Source: a virus. From it: a stretch of 44,174 bases of DNA. How positions within the stretch are numbered: position 1 is the stretch's first letter; each line of letters begins with the position of its first letter. The DNA is taken from the IMG/VR virus record IMGVR_UViG_3300037247_000872, positions 1-44,174 of that record; one strand, given 5' to 3'. A program made the translations under genes and the position numbers. The notes beneath the pieces are model-generated. The model saw nothing but the letters and a program-made list of their open reading frames with translations, was not told the origin of the DNA and made no database searches. Positions 1 through 44,174 of this stretch are shown piece after piece.

Positions 1-127
1 ACCCGCCGCTGAGCAAGAGCCCCCTGCGGGGGAGAGCGTAGCCAGCGGGCCAGAGGAAGAGGCCAAGCCCGAACAGGAGGCGACCCCAGACCCACGTAGC
101 CAGATGACGGAGACGCTGAAGGCGCTC
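1..127. repeat. Terminal direct repeat, left copy
   Basis: These 127 bases are identical to 44048-44174. The scaffold gene reads in frame through the join, so the two copies are one genomic locus seen twice in a circular or circularly permuted molecule. An overlap of exactly 127 is typical of a large assembly k-mer, so it is more likely an assembly overlap than a biological terminal repeat. Confidence 0.95.
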
Positions 128-14645: not shown

Positions 14646-15413
14646 ATGGACATAGCACCTGGCGTCCGCTACCTGACGCGGCGCGACTGGGGGGCCAACC
14701 CCGCCTACCCGCGCAAGGGCTACGCCGTCACGCGGGACAAGCGGACGCACGTCACCTTCCATCACACCGTCAGCATCGACCGGGACGCCACGCCCAACGT
14801 CTGGGAGACGCTGGACGAGGTGAAGGCGAAGATGCGCCAGCTCCAGGTGATCCGGCCCGACCTGGGCAACGACGTGCCCTACTCCTTCGTCTTCTTCCTG
14901 ATGGCGGACGGCACGATCATCGTCTGCGAGGGGCGAGGCTATGACCGGACCGGCGCCCACACGCACGGCCACAACACCGACGGGATGGGGCTCGCCGGCG
15001 CGGGCAACTTCGAGCTCGCCCGCAACATCGGCCCGTGGCTGCCGGAGATCAACGGCTTCCTCTGGCACCTGAAGTACGAGGCCAACATGCGGAACCTCGA
15101 AATCCGGCCCCACCCCATCCCCCCAAACCGCGTCTGCCACGGGCACCGTGACTTCAAGAGCACGGCCTGTCCGGGGCGCAACGTGTTCAACAGGCTACCC
15201 GAGATGAAGTTCGAGAAGAAGGAGGACGACACAATGAAAGCGTACCGTATCGAAGGTCGAGGCCCGCAGGTCTGGGGCTACACTATCGCTCAGTTCTGGC
15301 GGATGACCGGAGAGGAGTTTAGGGAGGCCAAGGAACTCGGCCTGAAGACGCCACTGCCACTGATGTCCAAGGCGAAGTTCAACGCCATTCGTAAGCGCCT
15401 CCACATGGACTAG
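14646..15413 (+). CDS. Endolysin: N-acetylmuramoyl-L-alanine amidase
   Basis: A 255-residue protein from ATG 14646. It looks like a zinc amidase of the T7-lysozyme/PGRP family, which cuts the bond between MurNAc and the peptide stem. Visible are the first zinc histidine in TFHHTV (residues 38-42), a central FELARNIGPW region, and the late signature CHGHRDFKSTACPG (about residues 162-175) with the second His, the Lys/Thr pair and the Cys ligand. Residues about 196-255 form a separate C-terminal domain, probably a wall-binding or regulatory domain. That part also has its own ribosome site and ATG. No signal peptide, so export would need the holin. Confidence 0.88.
   Translation: MDIAPGVRYLTRRDWGANPAYPRKGYAVTRDKRTHVTFHHTVSIDRDATPNVWETLDEVKAKMRQLQVIRPDLGNDVPYSFVFFLMADGTIIVCEGRGYDRTGAHTHGHNTDGMGLAGAGNFELARNIGPWLPEINGFLWHLKYEANMRNLEIRPHPIPPNRVCHGHRDFKSTACPGRNVFNRLPEMKFEKKEDDTMKAYRIEGRGPQVWGYTIAQFWRMTGEEFREAKELGLKTPLPLMSKAKFNAIRKRLHMD
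15234..15413 (+). CDS. Possible internal start for the endolysin C-terminal domain
   Basis: Within the amidase gene, AAGGAGG at 15219-15225 is followed, eight bases later, by the in-frame ATG 15234. Starting there would give a 59-residue protein equal to the C-terminal domain. Some known endolysins make a separate C-terminal fragment this way and assemble with it. The strong ribosome site is directly visible; use of it is inference. Confidence 0.4.
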   Translation: MKAYRIEGRGPQVWGYTIAQFWRMTGEEFREAKELGLKTPLPLMSKAKFNAIRKRLHMD

Positions 15414-15481
15414 CGCCCTTGCCCCGCCCCGCCGGCGATGGTAGGCTAGGGGTGGATGGCTCGTGAAGGGCCAGCGTGATG

Positions 15482-15520
15482 GGGCGAGGATGCTAGCAAC
15501 CGGCCTCGCCCTTATCATTT
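15482..15520 (+). terminator. Candidate terminator of the late operon
   Basis: GGGCGAGG (15482-15489) and CCTCGCCC (15504-15511) form an 8-bp stem with a 14-base loop, followed by TTATCATTT. It lies 68 bases after the endolysin stop and just before a strong promoter, which fits the end of the late transcript. Confidence 0.55.
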
Positions 15521-15547
15521 GACAGTAGCCACCGCAGTTGCTATCCT
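15519..15547 (+). promoter_or_regulatory. Promoter, sigma-70 type
   Basis: TTGACA at 15519-15524 and TATCCT at 15542-15547 are 17 bases apart. Transcription should begin near 15554. It follows a terminator and leads into the hairpin-rich region described as a candidate RNA. Confidence 0.75.
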
Positions 15548-15551
15548 GTAG

Positions 15552-15710
15552 ATGCTGACGATTGCTCCGGCCTTACCCGCTGGGGCTTTCGTTTCGTGGT
15601 ACACTAGAAATGCTAAGACCACCTTGGGCTACGCGCTCCAAGCTCTGGCCTGGCGGGATGGGGCTGCGGCCCTATCCCACTGCGATATGAACTGCGGATC
15701 ACGCAGCTAG
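15552..15710 (+). CDS. Possible small leaderless ORF within the candidate RNA
   Basis: A 52-residue frame from ATG 15552, only four bases after the -10 box, so it would be leaderless or nearly so. The product has mixed composition and a CDMNC near the end; it resembles nothing I know. It overlaps the first hairpin of the candidate RNA. It could be chance; listed because the same leaderless arrangement is seen for the regulator at 15984. Confidence 0.25.
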   Translation: MLTIAPALPAGAFVSWYTRNAKTTLGYALQALAWRDGAAALSHCDMNCGSRS

Positions 15711-15870
15711 TATTGCGCTGATCTGCTTGGTGGCTGGTTTCGGACGGCTGGCTACCAAGCGGTCACCCCTTCTCTGTTGGGGGTTCAGCAACAGAGTGGT
15801 GCGGACGCGGGGCCTACCCGGCTCCACGTACTCCGGCAGCGTAGCTCCCCCTCGCGGGGAGTTTCGCTTT
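15554..15870 (+). ncRNA. Candidate structured non-coding RNA
   Basis: From the promoter at 15519 to the terminator at 15845 lie about 315 bases with three strong hairpins: a 10-bp stem (15655-15664 with 15669-15678) closed by the very stable loop C(UGCG)G; a 12-bp stem with two G-U pairs (15723-15734 with 15751-15762); and an 8-bp stem (15772-15779 with 15789-15796, 9-base loop). No recognisable protein is encoded, though two short open frames exist. It could be a regulatory RNA that separates late and early transcription or a decoy for a host factor. Structure is seen; function is inference. Confidence 0.45.
15845..15870 (+). terminator. Candidate terminator of the structured RNA
   Basis: CTCCCC (15845-15850) pairs with GGGGAG (15856-15861) around CTCGC, followed by TTTCGCTTT. 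The stem is short but GC-rich. It would stop the transcript started at 15519 before the regulator promoter at 15949. Confidence 0.5.
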
Positions 15871-15948
15871 AGAGCCGATCGGCCAAGCTGAGGCGAGCCT
15901 TTACCAAAGCGGCAAGAACAATTTTGAGCCCTATAAAAGGCGCAGGCG

Positions 15949-15977
15949 TTGACAAACCCCCCACCGTGTCCTAATGT
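15949..15977 (+). promoter_or_regulatory. Early promoter of the regulator gene
   Basis: TTGACA at 15949-15954 and TAATGT at 15972-15977, 17 bases apart. The start codon follows the -10 box after six bases, so the transcript should begin at or next to the ATG, making it leaderless. The -10 box lies inside the palindrome at 15967-15984. It probably opens the whole early operon to about 28725. Confidence 0.8.
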
Positions 15978-15984
15978 TAGGACA
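15967..15984. promoter_or_regulatory. Operator palindrome over the -10 box
   Basis: TGTCCTAATGTTAGGACA: two 8-base arms, TGTCCTAA and TTAGGACA, are exact reverse complements around a central TG. It covers the -10 box TAATGT and touches the start codon. Ribbon-helix-helix proteins bind such short symmetric sites, and the downstream gene encodes one, so self-repression by blocking RNA polymerase is the natural reading. Confidence 0.65.
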
Positions 15985-16160
15985 TGCCCAAGCAGACAGA
16001 CACTATCAAAATCCACCTGAACCTAGACCGCGCTCTCGTTGCCTGGTTGCGGGGCGAGTGTGAACGGCGAGACATTGTTCCCTCGCGGGTAGTTGAGGAA
16101 GCTCTGCGTGGCATCCGCGATGTGTCAGATGCCCCAGCCCAGGTGGTGCGGCGTGGCTAG
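15984..16160 (+). CDS. Ribbon-helix-helix regulator (Arc/CopG type)
   Basis: A 58-residue protein from ATG 15984. The start TIKIHLNLD is an alternating beta strand, followed by helix DRALVAWLRGECERRD and helix VPSRVVEEALRGI: the standard ribbon-helix-helix fold, which binds DNA as a dimer with the strand in the major groove. No room exists for a leader or ribosome site between the -10 box and ATG. As first gene of the early region under a promoter overlapped by a palindrome, it is likely an autorepressor that times early transcription. Confidence 0.7.
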   Translation: MPKQTDTIKIHLNLDRALVAWLRGECERRDIVPSRVVEEALRGIRDVSDAPAQVVRRG

Positions 16161-17259: not shown

Positions 17260-17465
17260 TGCCTAGCCCCGCCGTCACGCTCTGCCGTCGGAGCTTCCAC
17301 GGAGGCAAGTACCGCGTCGCGCTGACCCGTTACACCTGCGACAACCCCATCGCCCCCTGCTCGGTCCGCACCGTGGCGCACAAGGGCCACAACTGGCTGG
17401 CGCCGGCCGGCTGGCGTCACTGCAACGGAGTTTCCCCGCTTAGAGAGAGGCCGGTGGGAACATGA
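17256..17465 (+). CDS. Unknown small early protein
   Basis: A 69-residue protein from ATG 17256, coupled to the previous stop by ATGA. It is basic, with three Cys and one His-rich segment (AHKGHNW). Possibly metal-binding. No family recognised. Confidence 0.45.
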   Translation: MMPSPAVTLCRRSFHGGKYRVALTRYTCDNPIAPCSVRTVAHKGHNWLAPAGWRHCNGVSPLRERPVGT

Positions 17466-17626
17466 CTTCCCCCCCCGGAAGTTTCCTACCTACCGCCACC
17501 AGCGACTCTCCCGCCGGTCTCTCTCTGGGCAGGGATGCTCAGACGTCAGCAAGGCGCAGGGGCCGGCACGGAGGCCCGCCTCTGCGGCACAGGAAGGAGG
17601 TGATGCTTAGTGATCAAGTGGGGTAG
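17462..17626 (+). CDS. Possible small basic protein
   Basis: A 54-residue frame from ATG 17462, overlapping the previous stop as ATGA. It is Ser/Pro-rich at first and Arg-rich later (RRRGRHGG). It fills an otherwise empty stretch and its coupling favours translation, but the composition gives no confirmation. Confidence 0.35.
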   Translation: MTSPPGSFLPTATSDSPAGLSLGRDAQTSARRRGRHGGPPLRHRKEVMLSDQVG

Positions 17627-20778: not shown

Positions 20779-20988
20779 ATGGTCCAGGAGAATACAGCGC
20801 AGCGCTGTCCAGTCTGCAACGGAGCGGGGGTTCTCTCAAACCGCGAATATCCTGGCAACGTGACCGCCCTTGCCCCGCCCACTATCCCTTGCCACGGCTG
20901 TGAAGGACGGGGGTGGGTGATCGTCGCTCAGCCGCCAACAGATGAATGGGAAGCAAGCGGCACTCAGCCGAGGTGCTTCGGCCCGTAG
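20779..20988 (+). CDS. DnaJ-type zinc-finger microprotein
   Basis: A 69-residue protein from ATG 20779, behind AAGGAG. CPVCNGAG followed by CHGCEGRGW is the CxxCxGxG pair of the DnaJ zinc domain. It resembles the protein at 18234 and may be a distant paralog. Function unknown. Confidence 0.6.
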   Translation: MVQENTAQRCPVCNGAGVLSNREYPGNVTALAPPTIPCHGCEGRGWVIVAQPPTDEWEASGTQPRCFGP

Positions 20989-22944: not shown

Positions 22945-23232
22945 ATGAAGGTACACGAACTCAAGTCGTGGGTCGGCTCCTTTCGGGCAGTCATTAGGAA
23001 CGCGAAGACCGCAGAGTTGCGCCACAATGATCGCAGCTTTCAGCCTGGCGACATTCTTGTGCTACGTGAGTGGGATGACGCAGCACAGAAGTACACGGGG
23101 GCCTCGGCCGTTGCCCGGATCACACACATCGTCGGGAGAGATATTAACGCCTTTGGGCTCTTGAGCGATGGAGCGGTCATGCTCTCGTTTCGGTTGCTGG
23201 ACGGGGAGGCTCCCAATGACCCCGCCCCCTAG
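22945..23232 (+). CDS. DUF3850 / ASCH-like protein
   Basis: A 95-residue protein from ATG 22945, behind GGAGGGGAGG. It starts MKVHELKSWVGSF and has KTAELRHNDRSFQPGD, then LREWDDAAQKYTG, the signature of DUF3850, a branch of the ASCH fold. These small beta-barrel proteins are thought to bind RNA or modified nucleotides. Full length for the family. Confidence 0.8.
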   Translation: MKVHELKSWVGSFRAVIRNAKTAELRHNDRSFQPGDILVLREWDDAAQKYTGASAVARITHIVGRDINAFGLLSDGAVMLSFRLLDGEAPNDPAP

Positions 23233-27335: not shown

Positions 27336-27544
27336 CCACCCACCCCCTCACGCCGCGCCAGCTAGAAGCCTGTGCCCTCTACGCGCAAGGCCTGAGGGCG
27401 CAGGAGATTGCGGACCGGATGCGTATCTCGCGTACCGCGGTCTACATGTATCTCGAAGGGGCGAAGCAACGCATGGGGGCGCGAACCGTGGGGCAGCTCA
27501 TGTTTCTTCTCGGGCGCGAGGTGCGGGGAGTGGAGGTGCGCTAG
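27332..27544 (+). CDS. LuxR-type helix-turn-helix protein B
   Basis: A 70-residue protein from ATG 27332 (ATGA overlap). It begins LTPRQLEACALYAQGLRAQEIADRMRISRTAV, the canonical LuxR/GerE HTH, followed by the third helix LEGAKQRMG and RTVGQL. No sensor domain. Paralogous to the protein at 23686. Located just before the replication initiator. Confidence 0.75.
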   Translation: MTTHPLTPRQLEACALYAQGLRAQEIADRMRISRTAVYMYLEGAKQRMGARTVGQLMFLLGREVRGVEVR

Positions 27545-27545
27545 G

Positions 27546-28523
27546 GTGGCCTGGATAGAGCTGCATCAGTCAGTTTTCCGTCACCCGAAGACTGATGGCG
27601 CGGCGAAGCTGCTAGGCATGGAGCGTGAGCCCCTTGTCGGCTACCTGGCCTCTTTGTGGTGCTGGGCCCTGGACGCCCTCCCTGAGTCGGGCGGTCCCAT
27701 CACTCAGGAGCAGGTGGCGCTCGGTGCCAACTGGCCGCACGATGCCGCCCAATTCTTCAACGCTTTAGTGTCCGCGGGGTACATCAAGCAGCGGCGGCGC
27801 AATGGGAAATTCTACCTGTCCAACTGGTCGAAGTATGCCGGCAAGCTGCTGGCAACGAGGGCTTCAGCGCGCGAAAGAAAGAGGCGAGAACGTGCCGGCA
27901 AATTGCGGGAAGGGAAACACGAAGGCGGTGATCAGGTGATCGCAAACGGCATTTCCAGTGCTCAAAATGAAGAAGTGAGAACGCCTGAATTGAACCTAGA
28001 TGTCACGCGTGACAGTCACGCCGATGTCACGCCTACCAACCAACCCAACCAACCCAACCAACCCAACCAACCCAACCCCTCTTCCGCCTCGGTCGATCAT
28101 CCTACGGATGATCTCCCTCAGCGGCCACTGGCGGCGGCTTTCAGGGATACGATTACGGCCTATCTATCAGCGGATGCAAAGTTCCGAGTAGCACGCCTCG
28201 TGGATCTCGGTGATGCGTTGGGCTACAGGCGAAATGGGGGGTTCACTGCGGCGCTGGTAAGGGATTTCGATCACGGGATGAAGATGGTCGATGCGATGGT
28301 GGCGGGAGCCACGGCTAAGGGCGACCCGTGGGAGTACGTGAGAAAGGCGCTAGGAAATGAAGAAGCTAGACGAGGCACTGCACGGGGCGGTCAGCAAGCG
28401 GGAGCTCTCCCCCCAGGAGGCGCTGAAGGCTTTAGCTCGGTCAGCGGGGCAGAGGTCCGCAAAGCTCTCAAGGCCAAAGCAGATGAAGCCGCTCGCGCTG
28501 GAAAGGGGGCTGATCCCGGATGA
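27546..28523 (+). CDS. Replication initiator candidate (phage replisome organiser type)
   Basis: A 325-residue protein from GTG 27546. Residues 1-100 resemble the N-terminal winged-helix of phage replisome organisers: VAWIELHQSVFRHPK, then LASLWCWALDALPE and YIKQRRRNGKFYLSNW. A basic helix (RERKRRERAGK) and a polar linker follow, with five Asn-Pro units separated by Gln (NQPNQPNQPNQPNP) near residue 166. The C-terminal part is helical. In lambda-type phages such a protein binds iterons inside its own gene and loads helicase. No helicase was recognised here, so a host helicase would be used. The last 167 bases overlap the next gene. Confidence 0.6.
   Translation: MAWIELHQSVFRHPKTDGAAKLLGMEREPLVGYLASLWCWALDALPESGGPITQEQVALGANWPHDAAQFFNALVSAGYIKQRRRNGKFYLSNWSKYAGKLLATRASARERKRRERAGKLREGKHEGGDQVIANGISSAQNEEVRTPELNLDVTRDSHADVTPTNQPNQPNQPNQPNPSSASVDHPTDDLPQRPLAAAFRDTITAYLSADAKFRVARLVDLGDALGYRRNGGFTAALVRDFDHGMKMVDAMVAGATAKGDPWEYVRKALGNEEARRGTARGGQQAGALPPGGAEGFSSVSGAEVRKALKAKADEAARAGKGADPG
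28001..28078. repeat. Iteron-like repeat cluster, candidate origin
   Basis: Inside the initiator gene: a perfect 14-base palindrome TGTCACGCGTGACA (28001-28014); GTCACGC three times in direct orientation (28002, 28015, 28026); and four exact tandem copies of AACCAACCC (28038-28073) plus a partial one. The upstream 60 bases are richer in A and T than the genome. Position in the linker of the initiator gene matches the lambda ori layout. Origin function is inference. Confidence 0.5.
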
Positions 28524-29402: not shown

Positions 29403-29458
29403 CTCCCTCTCCTACTCGCTGGCCTACCTCATCAGCGCCGGATGGCCACCCCCGGCGG

Positions 29459-29485
29459 ACGCCCCGGAGTGGGGCGTTTCGGCTT
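29459..29485 (+). terminator. Candidate rightward terminator
   Basis: ACGCCCC (29459-29465) and GGGGCGT (29471-29477) form a 7-bp stem around GGAGT, followed by TTTCGGCTT. It lies between two leftward genes, so it would stop rightward read-through from the early operon before it collides with the divergent promoters. Confidence 0.45.
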
Positions 29486-29798: not shown

Positions 29799-29827
29799 AT
29801 CATAACTCAATGCTCAGGACTTGTCAA
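29799..29827 (-). promoter_or_regulatory. Leftward promoter
   Basis: On the minus strand TTGACA (29827-29822) and TATGAT (29804-29799) are 17 bases apart. It drives the genes from 29756 to 28722. It faces away from the promoter at 29873, giving a compact divergent control region. Confidence 0.8.
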
Positions 29828-29960: not shown

Positions 29961-30152
29961 GTGCCTAAGCTCCCACGTCTCATACGCCACTGGCTCCACG
30001 CCCGCTACTGCTGCGAGTGCAGAGAGCCGGCAGAAGAGGCGGGGTCGATGTTCAACTATGTGGCACTCAAGGCTGAAGACGGTACCACGATGGTCATACC
30101 ATCGTTCAAGGCGCTCACTGCCACGGATGTAACACGGCGAGACGATGCCTAA
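29961..30152 (+). CDS. Small Cys-containing protein
   Basis: A 63-residue protein from GTG 29961, about seven bases after GAGGAGG; a TTG at 29901 lies in the -10 box and is not usable. It has a CCECREPAEEAG cluster near residue 18. Function unknown. First gene of the packaging transcript. Confidence 0.55.
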   Translation: MPKLPRLIRHWLHARYCCECREPAEEAGSMFNYVALKAEDGTTMVIPSFKALTATDVTRRDDA

Positions 30153-30666
30153 GATCCTCTATGGGCCACGGATGCCGAGACCCGGTGACTCACGCATCAT
30201 CAAGCGCTTCGCGGCTGCTACTGAAGAGGGCCATGGCACTAGCACAGCAGCAACGCTGGCTGGTATCAGTGGGGCCACGGCCAATGACTGGATACGCTAC
30301 GGCAATGAGGAACTAGCAGAGTATGGGGCGCAGGATGAGCCTGATGGTGAACTCGGTTCACATGCCGCCTTTGCCTTAGCCCACAAAGAGGCCGTAGCAG
30401 CCTTCGTGGCCCGGAACCTGGGCGTGGTGAACGCCAGCACGGCCGGCCCGAAGGGTTGGCTGCCCGCCATGACGCTCCTAGAGCGTAGACGCCCCCAGGA
30501 CTTCGCTAGGCGCTTCGAGGCGAAGGTAGAGACCACGATAGACCAGCGCGTCACCTTCTCCGTCGAGGCCCTGTCCCCGGACCGGCAGCGTGCCCTAGCA
30601 GAGCTGGCCCTGAAGCGGCTACTGGCGCCTGAGGACGTGGTGGACGGAGAGGTGGTGGAGCGTTGA
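30145..30666 (+). CDS. Terminase small subunit candidate
   Basis: A 173-residue protein from ATG 30145. An N-terminal helix-turn-helix (TSTAATLAGISGATANDWIRYG, residues about 32-53 in two parts) is followed by long helices and PAMTLLERRRPQDFARR near residue 120, a pattern typical of phage small terminases that recognise DNA for packaging. The C-terminus is acidic. It precedes the large subunit by 2.1 kb. Confidence 0.7.
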   Translation: MPKILYGPRMPRPGDSRIIKRFAAATEEGHGTSTAATLAGISGATANDWIRYGNEELAEYGAQDEPDGELGSHAAFALAHKEAVAAFVARNLGVVNASTAGPKGWLPAMTLLERRRPQDFARRFEAKVETTIDQRVTFSVEALSPDRQRALAELALKRLLAPEDVVDGEVVER

Positions 30667-32642: not shown

Positions 32643-32798
32643 ATGGCCCGTAAGGCGCTGGACGAGACGGATCTAGACACCCTGCTGGAAGCTCTCAGGG
32701 TGAAATTGGGGAAGGCCTACGCCAGGGGGCCTACCCGCTACGACAAGTTCCTCAGGGCATTGCTAAAGCGACACGGAGTGCGGGTGGATGGCACGTAA
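32643..32798 (+). CDS. Small protein duplicating the terminase N-terminus
   Basis: A 51-residue protein from ATG 32643. It begins MARKALDET, almost the same as MARKVLDET at the start of the large terminase, and the DNA of the first 28 bases matches at 24 positions. The rest is a basic helix. It may be the remnant of a duplicated gene start or a short accessory. It overlaps the terminase start by 11 bases. Confidence 0.5.
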   Translation: MARKALDETDLDTLLEALRVKLGKAYARGPTRYDKFLRALLKRHGVRVDGT

Positions 32799-34329
32799 AG
32801 TCCTGGACGAGACGACGCGGGCCTACGTGGAGGGGGCGCGGGAGGACTTCCCCTCCTACATGGCGCTGGTCCACGACACGGACATGCCGGAGCTCTTCGG
32901 CGGCGGTGCCCTGCCGGCACGGCACCACATGGACATCATCAACGTCCTCACGGACGACTCGCTCGGCCACTCCCTCATCGTCGCCCCTCGCGGCGCGGCC
33001 AAGACGTATCTGGTGCAGGGCTGGCTGGAGTGGCGCCTGGGGCGGGCATCGCTAGGGGGCGGGAACTGGGCCAACGAGTTCCGCGTCTCCTACACCTCCA
33101 ACACCGCTCACCAGGCGTACAAGGTGTCGAACGCGATCAAGGCCACGATCCAAGGAAACGCTGCGTTCCAAGCGTGTTTCCCGGCCGTTAAACCACACAA
33201 GGAGAAGTGGAGTGAGCCCGAATGGAAGGTGGACGGGAACACCGCGCTCCACTCCAACTTCATCGCCACCGGCGTCGGCGGCCCGCTCCTCGGCGCCCGC
33301 GCTGTCATCATCGTCTTCGATGACACCGACGATGAAGAGAACACGAGGTCCAAGCTGGAGCGGGAGAAGAACCTGCACTGGCACGAGAACACGGCGATGC
33401 CCGTCCTCGTCCCCTGGGGCCGGGCGATCAAGATCTGCACCCGCTGGCACGAAGACGACTCCGCCGCCTGGGCGATGGCGCAGGGCTGGCACACGCTCTA
33501 CATGAAGGCGCTACAGGAAGATGGCTCTTCCTACTGGCCCGAACGCTTCTCGGTGGAATATCTCGAAGGCCTGAGGAAGCGGCAGCCCATGTCCTTCGCC
33601 CTTCAGTACCAGAACGAGATCACGCCCTACGAGGGCATCATGTTCAAGCGCGACATGTTCCGCAACCGCTTCGAGTGGGCGCCGAGCCCGGAGGAGATCC
33701 GTCACGTCTTCGTCACCTGGGACACCGCCGGCACCCTCACGGGCCGCTCCTACACCGTGGGCCTGGTCGTCATCCTGACGAAGACGTGGAAGTACTACGT
33801 CGTCCACATGCTACGTGGCAAGATGGAGTATCCGCGTGTCCGCGACACCATCAGGGACACGGCGAACCGCTTCAAGGTCAACACCACCGTCATCGAGGCG
33901 AAGGCCACCGGCCAGCCCGCCTTCCAGGAGCTCAGCGGCGATGCGGGCATGTACGGCAACGTCGTGCCCGTCCTCCCGCCCGGGCAGCGCGGCGGGCCGG
34001 CGCAACTCGACTGGGTAGACCAGATTACGCCCGCCCTTGACGAGGGGCGATTATGGCTGCCATCGCCTGAGTTCTCTGCGAAGCGCGGGGCTGAGGACTG
34101 GACGCCGCAGTTCTTGGCTGAGATGTTGGCCTACCCCGAAGGGAGCAACGATGACATCGTGGTTGCCCTCACCCAGCTCATCTACCACGTCGAGCGTGAG
34201 AAGCACCGCTTTGAGATGAAGGATCGGAACCGCCTCGGCCCCATCCGCTACGGCAACCCTGCGGAGGTGCGGGACAAGAGGTGGTGGAAGAGAACACGGC
34301 CGGAGCCTAGTAGGAAGCTGCTGGTGTGA
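32788..34329 (+). CDS. Terminase large subunit
   Basis: A 513-residue protein from ATG 32788, the ATPase and nuclease that drives DNA into the capsid. Residues 66-73 hold the Walker A-type APRGAAKT; AVIIVFDD near 172 is the Walker B strand. The RNase-H-like nuclease follows with the first Asp in FVTWDTAGT (about 308), then TVIEAKATG (about 367) and NDDIVVALT (about 453). Length is normal. The deviant Walker A with Arg early is typical of terminases. Best supported gene of the packaging module. Confidence 0.95.
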   Translation: MARKVLDETTRAYVEGAREDFPSYMALVHDTDMPELFGGGALPARHHMDIINVLTDDSLGHSLIVAPRGAAKTYLVQGWLEWRLGRASLGGGNWANEFRVSYTSNTAHQAYKVSNAIKATIQGNAAFQACFPAVKPHKEKWSEPEWKVDGNTALHSNFIATGVGGPLLGARAVIIVFDDTDDEENTRSKLEREKNLHWHENTAMPVLVPWGRAIKICTRWHEDDSAAWAMAQGWHTLYMKALQEDGSSYWPERFSVEYLEGLRKRQPMSFALQYQNEITPYEGIMFKRDMFRNRFEWAPSPEEIRHVFVTWDTAGTLTGRSYTVGLVVILTKTWKYYVVHMLRGKMEYPRVRDTIRDTANRFKVNTTVIEAKATGQPAFQELSGDAGMYGNVVPVLPPGQRGGPAQLDWVDQITPALDEGRLWLPSPEFSAKRGAEDWTPQFLAEMLAYPEGSNDDIVVALTQLIYHVEREKHRFEMKDRNRLGPIRYGNPAEVRDKRWWKRTRPEPSRKLLV

Positions 34330-35214: not shown

Positions 35215-35367
35215 CGCTGCTGGCGCTGCAACCGCGTCCTCGCCGAGTACATGACGAGGCCGTGGTCGAAACGCTGTCACCGCTGCAAGGCCGAGAACCG
35301 CTCGGACCCCGCAGAGATCGCCTTGACAAAGGCTTCGGGTAACGTTAGCCTAGACACCGACAAGTAG
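35194..35367 (+). CDS. Com-like zinc-finger regulator
   Basis: A 57-residue protein from ATG 35194. RCWRCNRVLAEYM and KRCHRCKAENR form the C-x2-C, C-x2-C finger of the phage Mu Com family, which binds a stem-loop in mRNA and switches on translation of the mom gene. Here it lies directly upstream of the portal gene, whose start lacks AUG and is preceded by a strong hairpin. The promoter at 35323 is within its 3' end. Confidence 0.7.
   Translation: MTTDTSPRCWRCNRVLAEYMTRPWSKRCHRCKAENRSDPAEIALTKASGNVSLDTDK
35323..35351 (+). promoter_or_regulatory. Portal operon promoter
   Basis: TTGACA (35323-35328) and TAGCCT (35346-35351), 17 bases apart, inside the 3' end of the Com-like gene. Around the -10 box, TAGCCTAGACA resembles TAAGCTAGACA of the scaffold promoter at 43846, suggesting a shared late-promoter type. 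Confidence 0.75.
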
Positions 35368-35396
35368 CTACCCCTTCGCGGCCCCCGCCGTATCGC

Positions 35397-35431
35397 GGCC
35401 CCCAACTAGCGGCACTGGGGGCCTTTGTCTT
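35397..35431 (+). terminator. Attenuator-like hairpin before the portal gene
   Basis: GGCCCCC (35397-35403) pairs with GGGGGCC (35417-35423), followed by TTTGTCTTAT. CGCGGCCCCC occurs twice (35377 and 35394), so the 3' arm can pair with either copy. It lies between the promoter and the portal reading frame, as an attenuator or a protein-binding stem-loop would. Its end adjoins the proposed ATC start. Confidence 0.5.
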
Positions 35432-43874: not shown

Positions 43875-43934
43875 AGACAGCAACGTTAAGCATTCTGAGC
43901 GCTCTTTGAGGCGTCGAGCTTCGGAGGGCGTTTT

Positions 43935-44174
43935 ATGTTTCCCCTCAGACAGTCACCCGACGACCCCACGGCAGCGACAGCGGAGCCCGCGCCCGCCGCG
44001 CAGGCGGCAGAGGCTACTGCTGAGGTCGCACCTGAAGGCGAGGCCGCACCCGCCGCTGAGCAAGAGCCCCCTGCGGGGGAGAGCGTAGCCAGCGGGCCAG
44101 AGGAAGAGGCCAAGCCCGAACAGGAGGCGACCCCAGACCCACGTAGCCAGATGACGGAGACGCTGAAGGCGCTC
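43935..44174 (+). CDS. Capsid scaffolding protein, 5' part crossing the ends
   Basis: From ATG 43935, seven bases after GGAGGG, the frame runs off the window at 44174 and continues at base 128 to the stop at 880, giving 330 residues in all. The N-terminal 72 residues encoded here are Ala/Glu/Pro-rich and disordered. See the entry at 2-880. Confidence 0.75.
   Translation, partial: MFPLRQSPDDPTAATAEPAPAAQAAEATAEVAPEGEAAPAAEQEPPAGESVASGPEEEAKPEQEATPDPRSQMTETLKAL
44048..44174. repeat. Terminal direct repeat, right copy
   Basis: Identical to 1-127. See the left copy for interpretation. Confidence 0.95.

What the first reader, a model, noticed from the sequence alone, without database searches (positions are those of the whole stretch)
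15519..15870. Promoter-to-terminator unit rich in hairpins: candidate phage RNA
An exact TTGACA-N17-TATCCT promoter and a GC-rich terminator bracket about 315 bases without a recognisable gene but with stems of 10, 12 and 8 bp, one closed by a UNCG-type tetraloop. In a genome with almost no empty space, such a unit should matter, for example as a regulatory RNA, a sponge for a host protein or an anti-defence RNA.
Basis: partly seen in the sequence, partly recalled or inferred. Interest (0 to 1): 0.65.

Follow-up and report, generated by a model that had tools for sequence, protein, structure and literature searches.

The report
Structured noncoding RNA in orphan phage
A little-known phage carries, behind one of its few strong promoters and just before its early genes, about 350 bases that code for no protein but fold far better than chance as RNA; this is probably a control RNA of a kind not yet described, but no relatives exist in the collections to prove the fold.

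Summary
The window is a complete circular phage genome (127-bp terminal repeat). Its only relative found is a 26-kb fragment that does not cover this locus. The observation largely holds. The 15519 promoter is real: TTGACA-N16-18-TANNNT occurs 7 times against 0.18 expected, and it is the only site of at least 10/12 matches with an extended -10. The region downstream is noncoding and is the most structured 200-nt window of the genome. Positions 15554-15905 fold at z = -6.0 on the + strand and -2.8 on the - strand. The 3' boundary is doubtful. The claimed terminator (15838-15868) scores below many chance sites, and its hairpin more likely lies inside a larger fold closed by a long-range helix (15627-15650 with 15881-15899). 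A better terminator-like hairpin sits at the 5' end (15557-15591). The same promoter-then-hairpin layout occurs at two late promoters (35323, 43846), and hairpins are kept there in the relative. Best reading: a functional + strand structured RNA (about 0.8), most likely a cis-acting leader that controls early transcription, like but not belonging to HK022 put (about 0.4). A stand-alone trans-acting RNA is nearly as likely. Covariation could not be tested.

The parts
15482..15511 (+). Hairpin with TTATCATTT tail after the endolysin gene; possible end of the late operon
   Evidence: I11; score 29.7, nothing special
15519..15547 (+). Sigma-70 type promoter TTGACA-N17-TATCCT with TGn
15557..15593 (+). 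Hairpin H1 (8 bp + 5 bp), about +4 to +40, terminator-like with tail TTTCGTTTCG
   Evidence: z -4.9
15596..15622 (+). Small hairpin H2 (weak on its own)
   Evidence: z -1.2
15627..15650 (+). 5' arm of long-range closing helix P1
   Evidence: energy gain reached by 0 of 60 shuffles, but duplex energy alone by 91 of 1000
15655..15678 (+). Hairpin P2, 10 bp with UGCG (UNCG) tetraloop
   Evidence: z -5.1
15682..15716 (+). Hairpin P3, 7 + 5 bp with GAA/CUA internal loop and GAUCA loop
   Evidence: z -3.8
15723..15762 (+). Hairpin P4, 15-17 bp with many G-U pairs, loop UCGGAC
   Evidence: z -6.2
15772..15796 (+). 8-bp hairpin CUCUGUUG/CAACAGAG, in competition with another fold (probability about 0.5)
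15838..15868 (+).
   Evidence: z -4.7
15881..15899 (+). 3' arm of closing helix P1
15949..15977 (+). Second promoter TTGACA-N17-TAATGT for the early genes
15967..15984 (.). Perfect dyad TGTCCTAA-TG-TTAGGACA, probable operator
   Evidence: I15
15984..16160 (+). 58-aa ORF, ribbon-helix-helix-like by eye only; first early gene
   Evidence: coding score +0.07; no Pfam, PHROG or PDB relative; AlphaFold model inconclusive
14646..15413 (+). Endolysin (N-acetylmuramoyl-L-alanine amidase), last late gene

Best explanation
From about 15554 the phage makes an untranslated RNA of roughly 350 nt that is selected to fold on the + strand. It has a 5' module of two hairpins, then a multi-branched domain (P2, P3, P4, P6) closed by a long-range helix. 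Shown: promoter, strand-specific fold, absence of coding. Inferred: it stands at the head of the early transcription unit and acts mainly in cis, as a structured leader that decides whether RNA polymerase passes the promoter-proximal hairpin and goes on into the early genes (antitermination or attenuation, in the manner of HK022 put or lambda tR'/Q control).
For: Promoter far beyond chance. Fold z about -6 on + and -2.8 on -, most structured place in the genome, main helices stable whatever 3' end is taken. Noncoding. No convincing 3' terminator, so the transcript probably continues towards 15984. The same layout, promoter then terminator-like hairpin within 120 nt, occurs at 3 of 5 plus-strand promoters (15519, 35323, 43846) where 5% of positions would show one this strong (by hand P about 0.001). 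At 43899-43931 the relative L002 keeps the hairpin with one two-sided and three one-sided changes and no broken pair (by hand). At 35380-35423 the relative has a different hairpin in the same place.
Against: No homologue, so no covariation for this RNA. No RNA expression data. The early genes have a promoter of their own at 15949 with a dyad over its -10, so they may not need this leader. A closed multi-branched domain of 270 nt is more than a put-like element or an attenuator needs. The terminator-like hairpins have imperfect U-tracts. The count of promoters with hairpins was made after seeing the pattern. The only antiterminator hint is a weak Q-like match (E 0.0012) of a short ORF at 20779-20988.
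Confidence: 0.4

Rival explanations
1. Stand-alone trans-acting structured RNA: transcription from 15519 gives an abundant, stable RNA that ends near 15870-15905 and binds a host or phage protein or RNA (regulator, decoy or anti-defence RNA).
For: Own strong promoter, self-contained fold with closing helix P1 and a UNCG-capped stem, early genes have a separate promoter. The phage encodes a protein matching an RNA-binding family (22945-23232, phrog_986, E 3e-26).
Against: No good terminator at the 3' end, no Rfam relative, GGA not enriched, no tandem repeats as in type III antitoxin mimics, no partner identified.
Confidence: 0.35
2. DNA-level element: the hairpins mark a replication origin, recombination or packaging site, and transcription is incidental.
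For: Large noncoding gap (570 nt from the endolysin stop to the first early ORF) at the late/early boundary; hairpin-rich DNA is common at origins (general knowledge).
Against: The fold is strand-specific and rich in G-U pairs, which only RNA of the + strand gains from. No GC-skew turn here. No iterons in the locus. The terminase small subunit gene, the usual neighbour of a packaging site, is at 30145-30666.
Confidence: 0.08
3. Decaying or chance-structured spacer, for example a relic of a gene or of an inserted element.
For: No homologues anywhere; the phage lineage is nearly unsampled.
Against: 0 of 100 shuffles fold as well and the region is 4 sd from the genome trend; strand asymmetry; a strong promoter placed exactly at its start.
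Confidence: 0.12
4. Short protein gene(s): the 52-aa frame at 15552 (possibly leaderless) or the 54-aa frame at 15727.
For: Both frames are open; a start of transcription exactly at 15552 would make the first a leaderless gene.
Against: Codon scores -0.07 and -0.07 against +0.10 to +0.36 for known genes; third-position GC 0.65-0.69 against 0.80; no Shine-Dalgarno sequence seen.
Confidence: 0.05

Closest known systems
HK022 put RNAs (putL, putR)
   Same: Structured untranslated RNA just downstream of a phage early sigma-70 promoter; the first ~70 nt here fold as two hairpins, as putL does (PMC9378689).
   Different: About 350 nt instead of ~70; no sequence similarity to the HK022 early region in a word-7 blastn; extra multi-branched domain; antitermination untested.
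Lambda-type late control (pR'-tR', Q protein; 6S RNA)
   Same: Promoter followed at once by a terminator-like hairpin, here at 15519, 35323 and 43846.
   Different: No Q protein established, only a weak Q-like match (E 0.0012) at 20779-20988; leader far longer and more structured.
GOLLD and ROOL large ornate phage RNAs
   Same: Phage-borne, noncoding, many-stemmed RNA of unknown function (PMC12286853).
   Different: About half their size, no tRNA nearby, no covariance-model match.
Phage small RNAs such as PreS and VpdS (Hfq-dependent)
   Same: Phage-encoded noncoding RNA (PMC12197685).
   Different: This RNA is heavily paired, about 350 nt, and lacks a good intrinsic terminator.

Membership tests
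HK022 put RNA | Two stem-loops of about 70 nt directly downstream of the early promoter | tested here: inconclusive
   Two hairpins at 15557-15622 after the 15519 promoter, but H2 is weak (z -1.2) and 280 nt more follow.
HK022 put RNA | Sequence similarity to putL/putR | tested here: not met
   No match of 15548-15905 to the HK022 early region, blastn word 7, E up to 10.
HK022 put RNA | Read-through of terminators without a protein factor | not testable with these tools
   Needs in vitro transcription.
GOLLD / ROOL | Match to the Rfam covariance model | tested here: not met
   No match at gathering threshold or at E up to 5.
GOLLD / ROOL | About 600-800 nt, near tRNA genes | tested here: not met
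   About 350 nt; no tRNA in the genome.
CsrA/RsmA sponge RNA | Many GGA motifs in hairpin loops | tested here: not met
   5 GGA in 358 nt against 7.7 expected.
Retron ncRNA | Reverse transcriptase gene alongside | tested here: not met
   No PF00078 match in the genome, controls positive.
Type III toxin-antitoxin RNA or its phage mimic | Tandem repeats of about 35 nt | tested here: not met
   No tandem family in 15400-16000.
Hfq-dependent phage sRNA | Intrinsic terminator with U-run at the 3' end | tested here: not met
   Tail TTTCGCTTTAG, score below many sites in genes.
Hfq-dependent phage sRNA | Binding to Hfq | not testable with these tools
   Needs co-precipitation.

The most novel reading that the evidence does not exclude
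A new class of phage structured RNA in an RNA-rich control programme: the same genome also carries a type II hammerhead ribozyme between two genes of a minus-strand unit and a 190-nt rod-like RNA at 17385-17576, and at least three of its promoters fire straight into terminator-like hairpins. The 15.5-kb RNA could be the master RNA element that switches early transcription.
Probability: 0.25. Interest if true: 0.7.

Novelty: new variant of a known kind. Interest (0 to 1): 0.45.

Why it matters
Few phage noncoding RNAs of this size and complexity are known, and the function of most is unknown. If real, this one gives a sharply bounded test case, with promoter, strand, helices and neighbouring regulatory site named, for how a phage uses structured RNA at the entry to its early genes. 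Its absence from every collection searched also suggests how much phage RNA biology lies in unsampled lineages.

Tried and rejected
Homologues of the RNA or locus: blastn distant on phages and plasmids (only 23-nt chance hits in Streptomyces phages), DNA patterns from loops in IMG/VR, endolysin in phages, IMG/VR and GTDB genomes, the 686-aa late protein, terminase and the 595-aa protein: only IMGVR_UViG_3300005253_001103, which stops before the locus. A broad terminase alignment returned only distant terminases (about 22-29% identity). Rfam on the locus down to E 5: nothing credible. Retron, CsrA sponge, tandem-repeat antitoxin RNA, tRNA or tmRNA, put family by sequence: rejected. AlphaFold of the 58-aa ORF without an alignment was inconclusive, so 'ribbon-helix-helix' stays a guess.

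Full report
WHAT THE WINDOW IS. The 44,174-base window is a virus record with a perfect 127-bp repeat at its ends, so it is a complete circular or circularly permuted phage genome. It encodes a terminase (32788-34329), a terminase small subunit (30145-30666), a replication initiator (27408-28523) and an amidase endolysin (14646-15413). Its terminase is at best about 26% identical to those of sequenced phages. The only close relative found is IMGVR_UViG_3300005253_001103 (91% in the terminase), which covers window positions about 25.4 kb through the junction to about 8 kb and so misses the locus. The finding lies between the endolysin gene, the last late gene, and the first early gene at 15984.

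THE PROMOTER IS REAL. TTGACA-N17-TATCCT at 15519 is the only site in the genome with at least 10 of 12 matches and an extended -10 (0.017 expected). TTGACA-N16-18-TANNNT is found 7 times against 0.18 expected, and six of the seven lie outside the main genes: 15519, 15949, 29873, 35323 and 43846 on the + strand and 29827 on the - strand. The phage therefore uses sigma-70 type promoters, and 15519 is one of them.

THE RNA IS REAL AS A FOLD, ON ONE STRAND. Positions 15554-15872 fold at -162.6 kcal/mol (z -6.4), 15554-15905 at -181.9 (z -6.0). The opposite strand reaches only z -2.8, because many stems contain G-U pairs. Among 200-nt windows of this genome and of the related contig, 15601-15800 (+) is the most extreme. 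Hairpins H1, P2, P3, P4 and P6 have pair probabilities near 1 in their core helices whatever 3' end is chosen, and each folds far better than its shuffles on its own (z -3.8 to -6.2); H2 and the 8-bp hairpin at 15772 are weak or in competition. When the transcript is extended to 15905, a long-range helix 15627-15650/15881-15899 closes the domain with probability above 0.8. Its support is moderate: none of 60 shuffles of the added 33 nt gives the same energy gain, but 91 of 1000 shuffles of 15873-15983 give as good a duplex. No frame in the region looks like a gene of this phage.

A better terminator-like hairpin is H1, directly after the start of transcription. This layout recurs. After the promoter at 35323 there is a hairpin at 35380-35423 ending in TTTGTCTT; after 43846 one at 43899-43931 ending in TTTTATG just before a gene. 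Three of five + promoters have such a site of -15 kcal/mol or better within 120 nt, where 5% of positions do. In the relative, hairpins sit at the same two places (L002 8688-8713 and 18090-18117). At the second, the pairs read by eye against 43899-43931 show one change on both sides, three on one side and none that breaks a pair. So promoter-proximal hairpins appear to be part of this phage's control of transcription, though the count was made after the pattern was seen.

HOW IT MOST LIKELY WORKS. Shown by sequence: promoter, noncoding strand-specific fold, position ahead of the early genes. Inferred: the RNA is an untranslated leader that acts on the polymerase that makes it, so that transcription passes H1 and later terminators into the early genes, or is held back. 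The nearest parallel is HK022 put, a two-hairpin RNA just after the early promoter that makes polymerase ignore terminators (PMC9378689). No sequence similarity to the HK022 early region was detected, so it is not filed as a put RNA. Against the cis model stand the separate early promoter at 15949, with a perfect dyad TGTCCTAA-TG-TTAGGACA over its -10, and the large closed domain, which fits a stand-alone RNA acting in trans about as well. I put a functional structured RNA at about 0.8, the cis leader at 0.4 and the trans RNA at 0.35.

KNOWN FAMILIES. No Rfam family matches. GOLLD and ROOL are larger, often sit near tRNAs and have models that do not match. Retron, CsrA-sponge and tandem-repeat RNA readings were tested and not met. 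The phage small RNAs reviewed in the section read of PMC12197685 are mostly small base-pairing RNAs.

LIMITS. All structure rests on thermodynamic prediction for one sequence. No covariation, expression or phenotype is available. Absence of relatives reflects poor sampling of this lineage and exact-pattern searching, and does not show that the RNA is unique.

Noticed in passing
window 29418-29484 (-): Type II hammerhead ribozyme (RF02276, 63.9 bits against a gathering score of 37) with intact CUGAUGA and GAAA core, placed between the stop of ORF 29810-29484 and the start of ORF 29402-29070 (phrog_1273), behind the strong minus promoter at 29827. Probably cuts a two-gene phage mRNA.. Not found in the relative L002.
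   Followed up: partly
window 17385-17576 (+): Second strand-specific structured region in a gene gap: a 190-nt rod with an unbroken 22-bp helix (17438-17459/17509-17530), z -5.3 on + and -1.4 on -; no credible Rfam match..
   Followed up: partly
window 15725-15746 and 17394-17415: 22-nt stretch 82% alike shared by the two structured RNAs (query positions 178-199 counted from 15554, i.e. 15731-15752); may be chance in GC-rich sequence.
   Followed up: no
window 15967-15984: Perfect 8-2-8 dyad over the -10 of the 15949 promoter and the start of a 58-aa ORF: probable autoregulatory operator..
   Followed up: partly
window 35380-35423 and 43899-43931: Terminator-like hairpins between late promoters and their genes, at the same places in the relative (L002 8688-8713, 18090-18117)..
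   Followed up: partly
window 29827 (-) and 29873 (+): Back-to-back near-consensus promoters (11 of 12 each) in a divergent gap; likely the main early switch region..
   Followed up: no
window 22945-23232 and 20779-20988: A 95-aa ORF matches the PHROG family 'RNA-binding protein' (phrog_986, E 3e-26); a 69-aa ORF matches Q-like antiterminators weakly (E 0.0012)..
   Followed up: no
window 1-127 and 44048-44174: Identical 127-bp ends: complete circular assembly; the gene at the junction starts near 43938 and continues to 880..
   Followed up: yes
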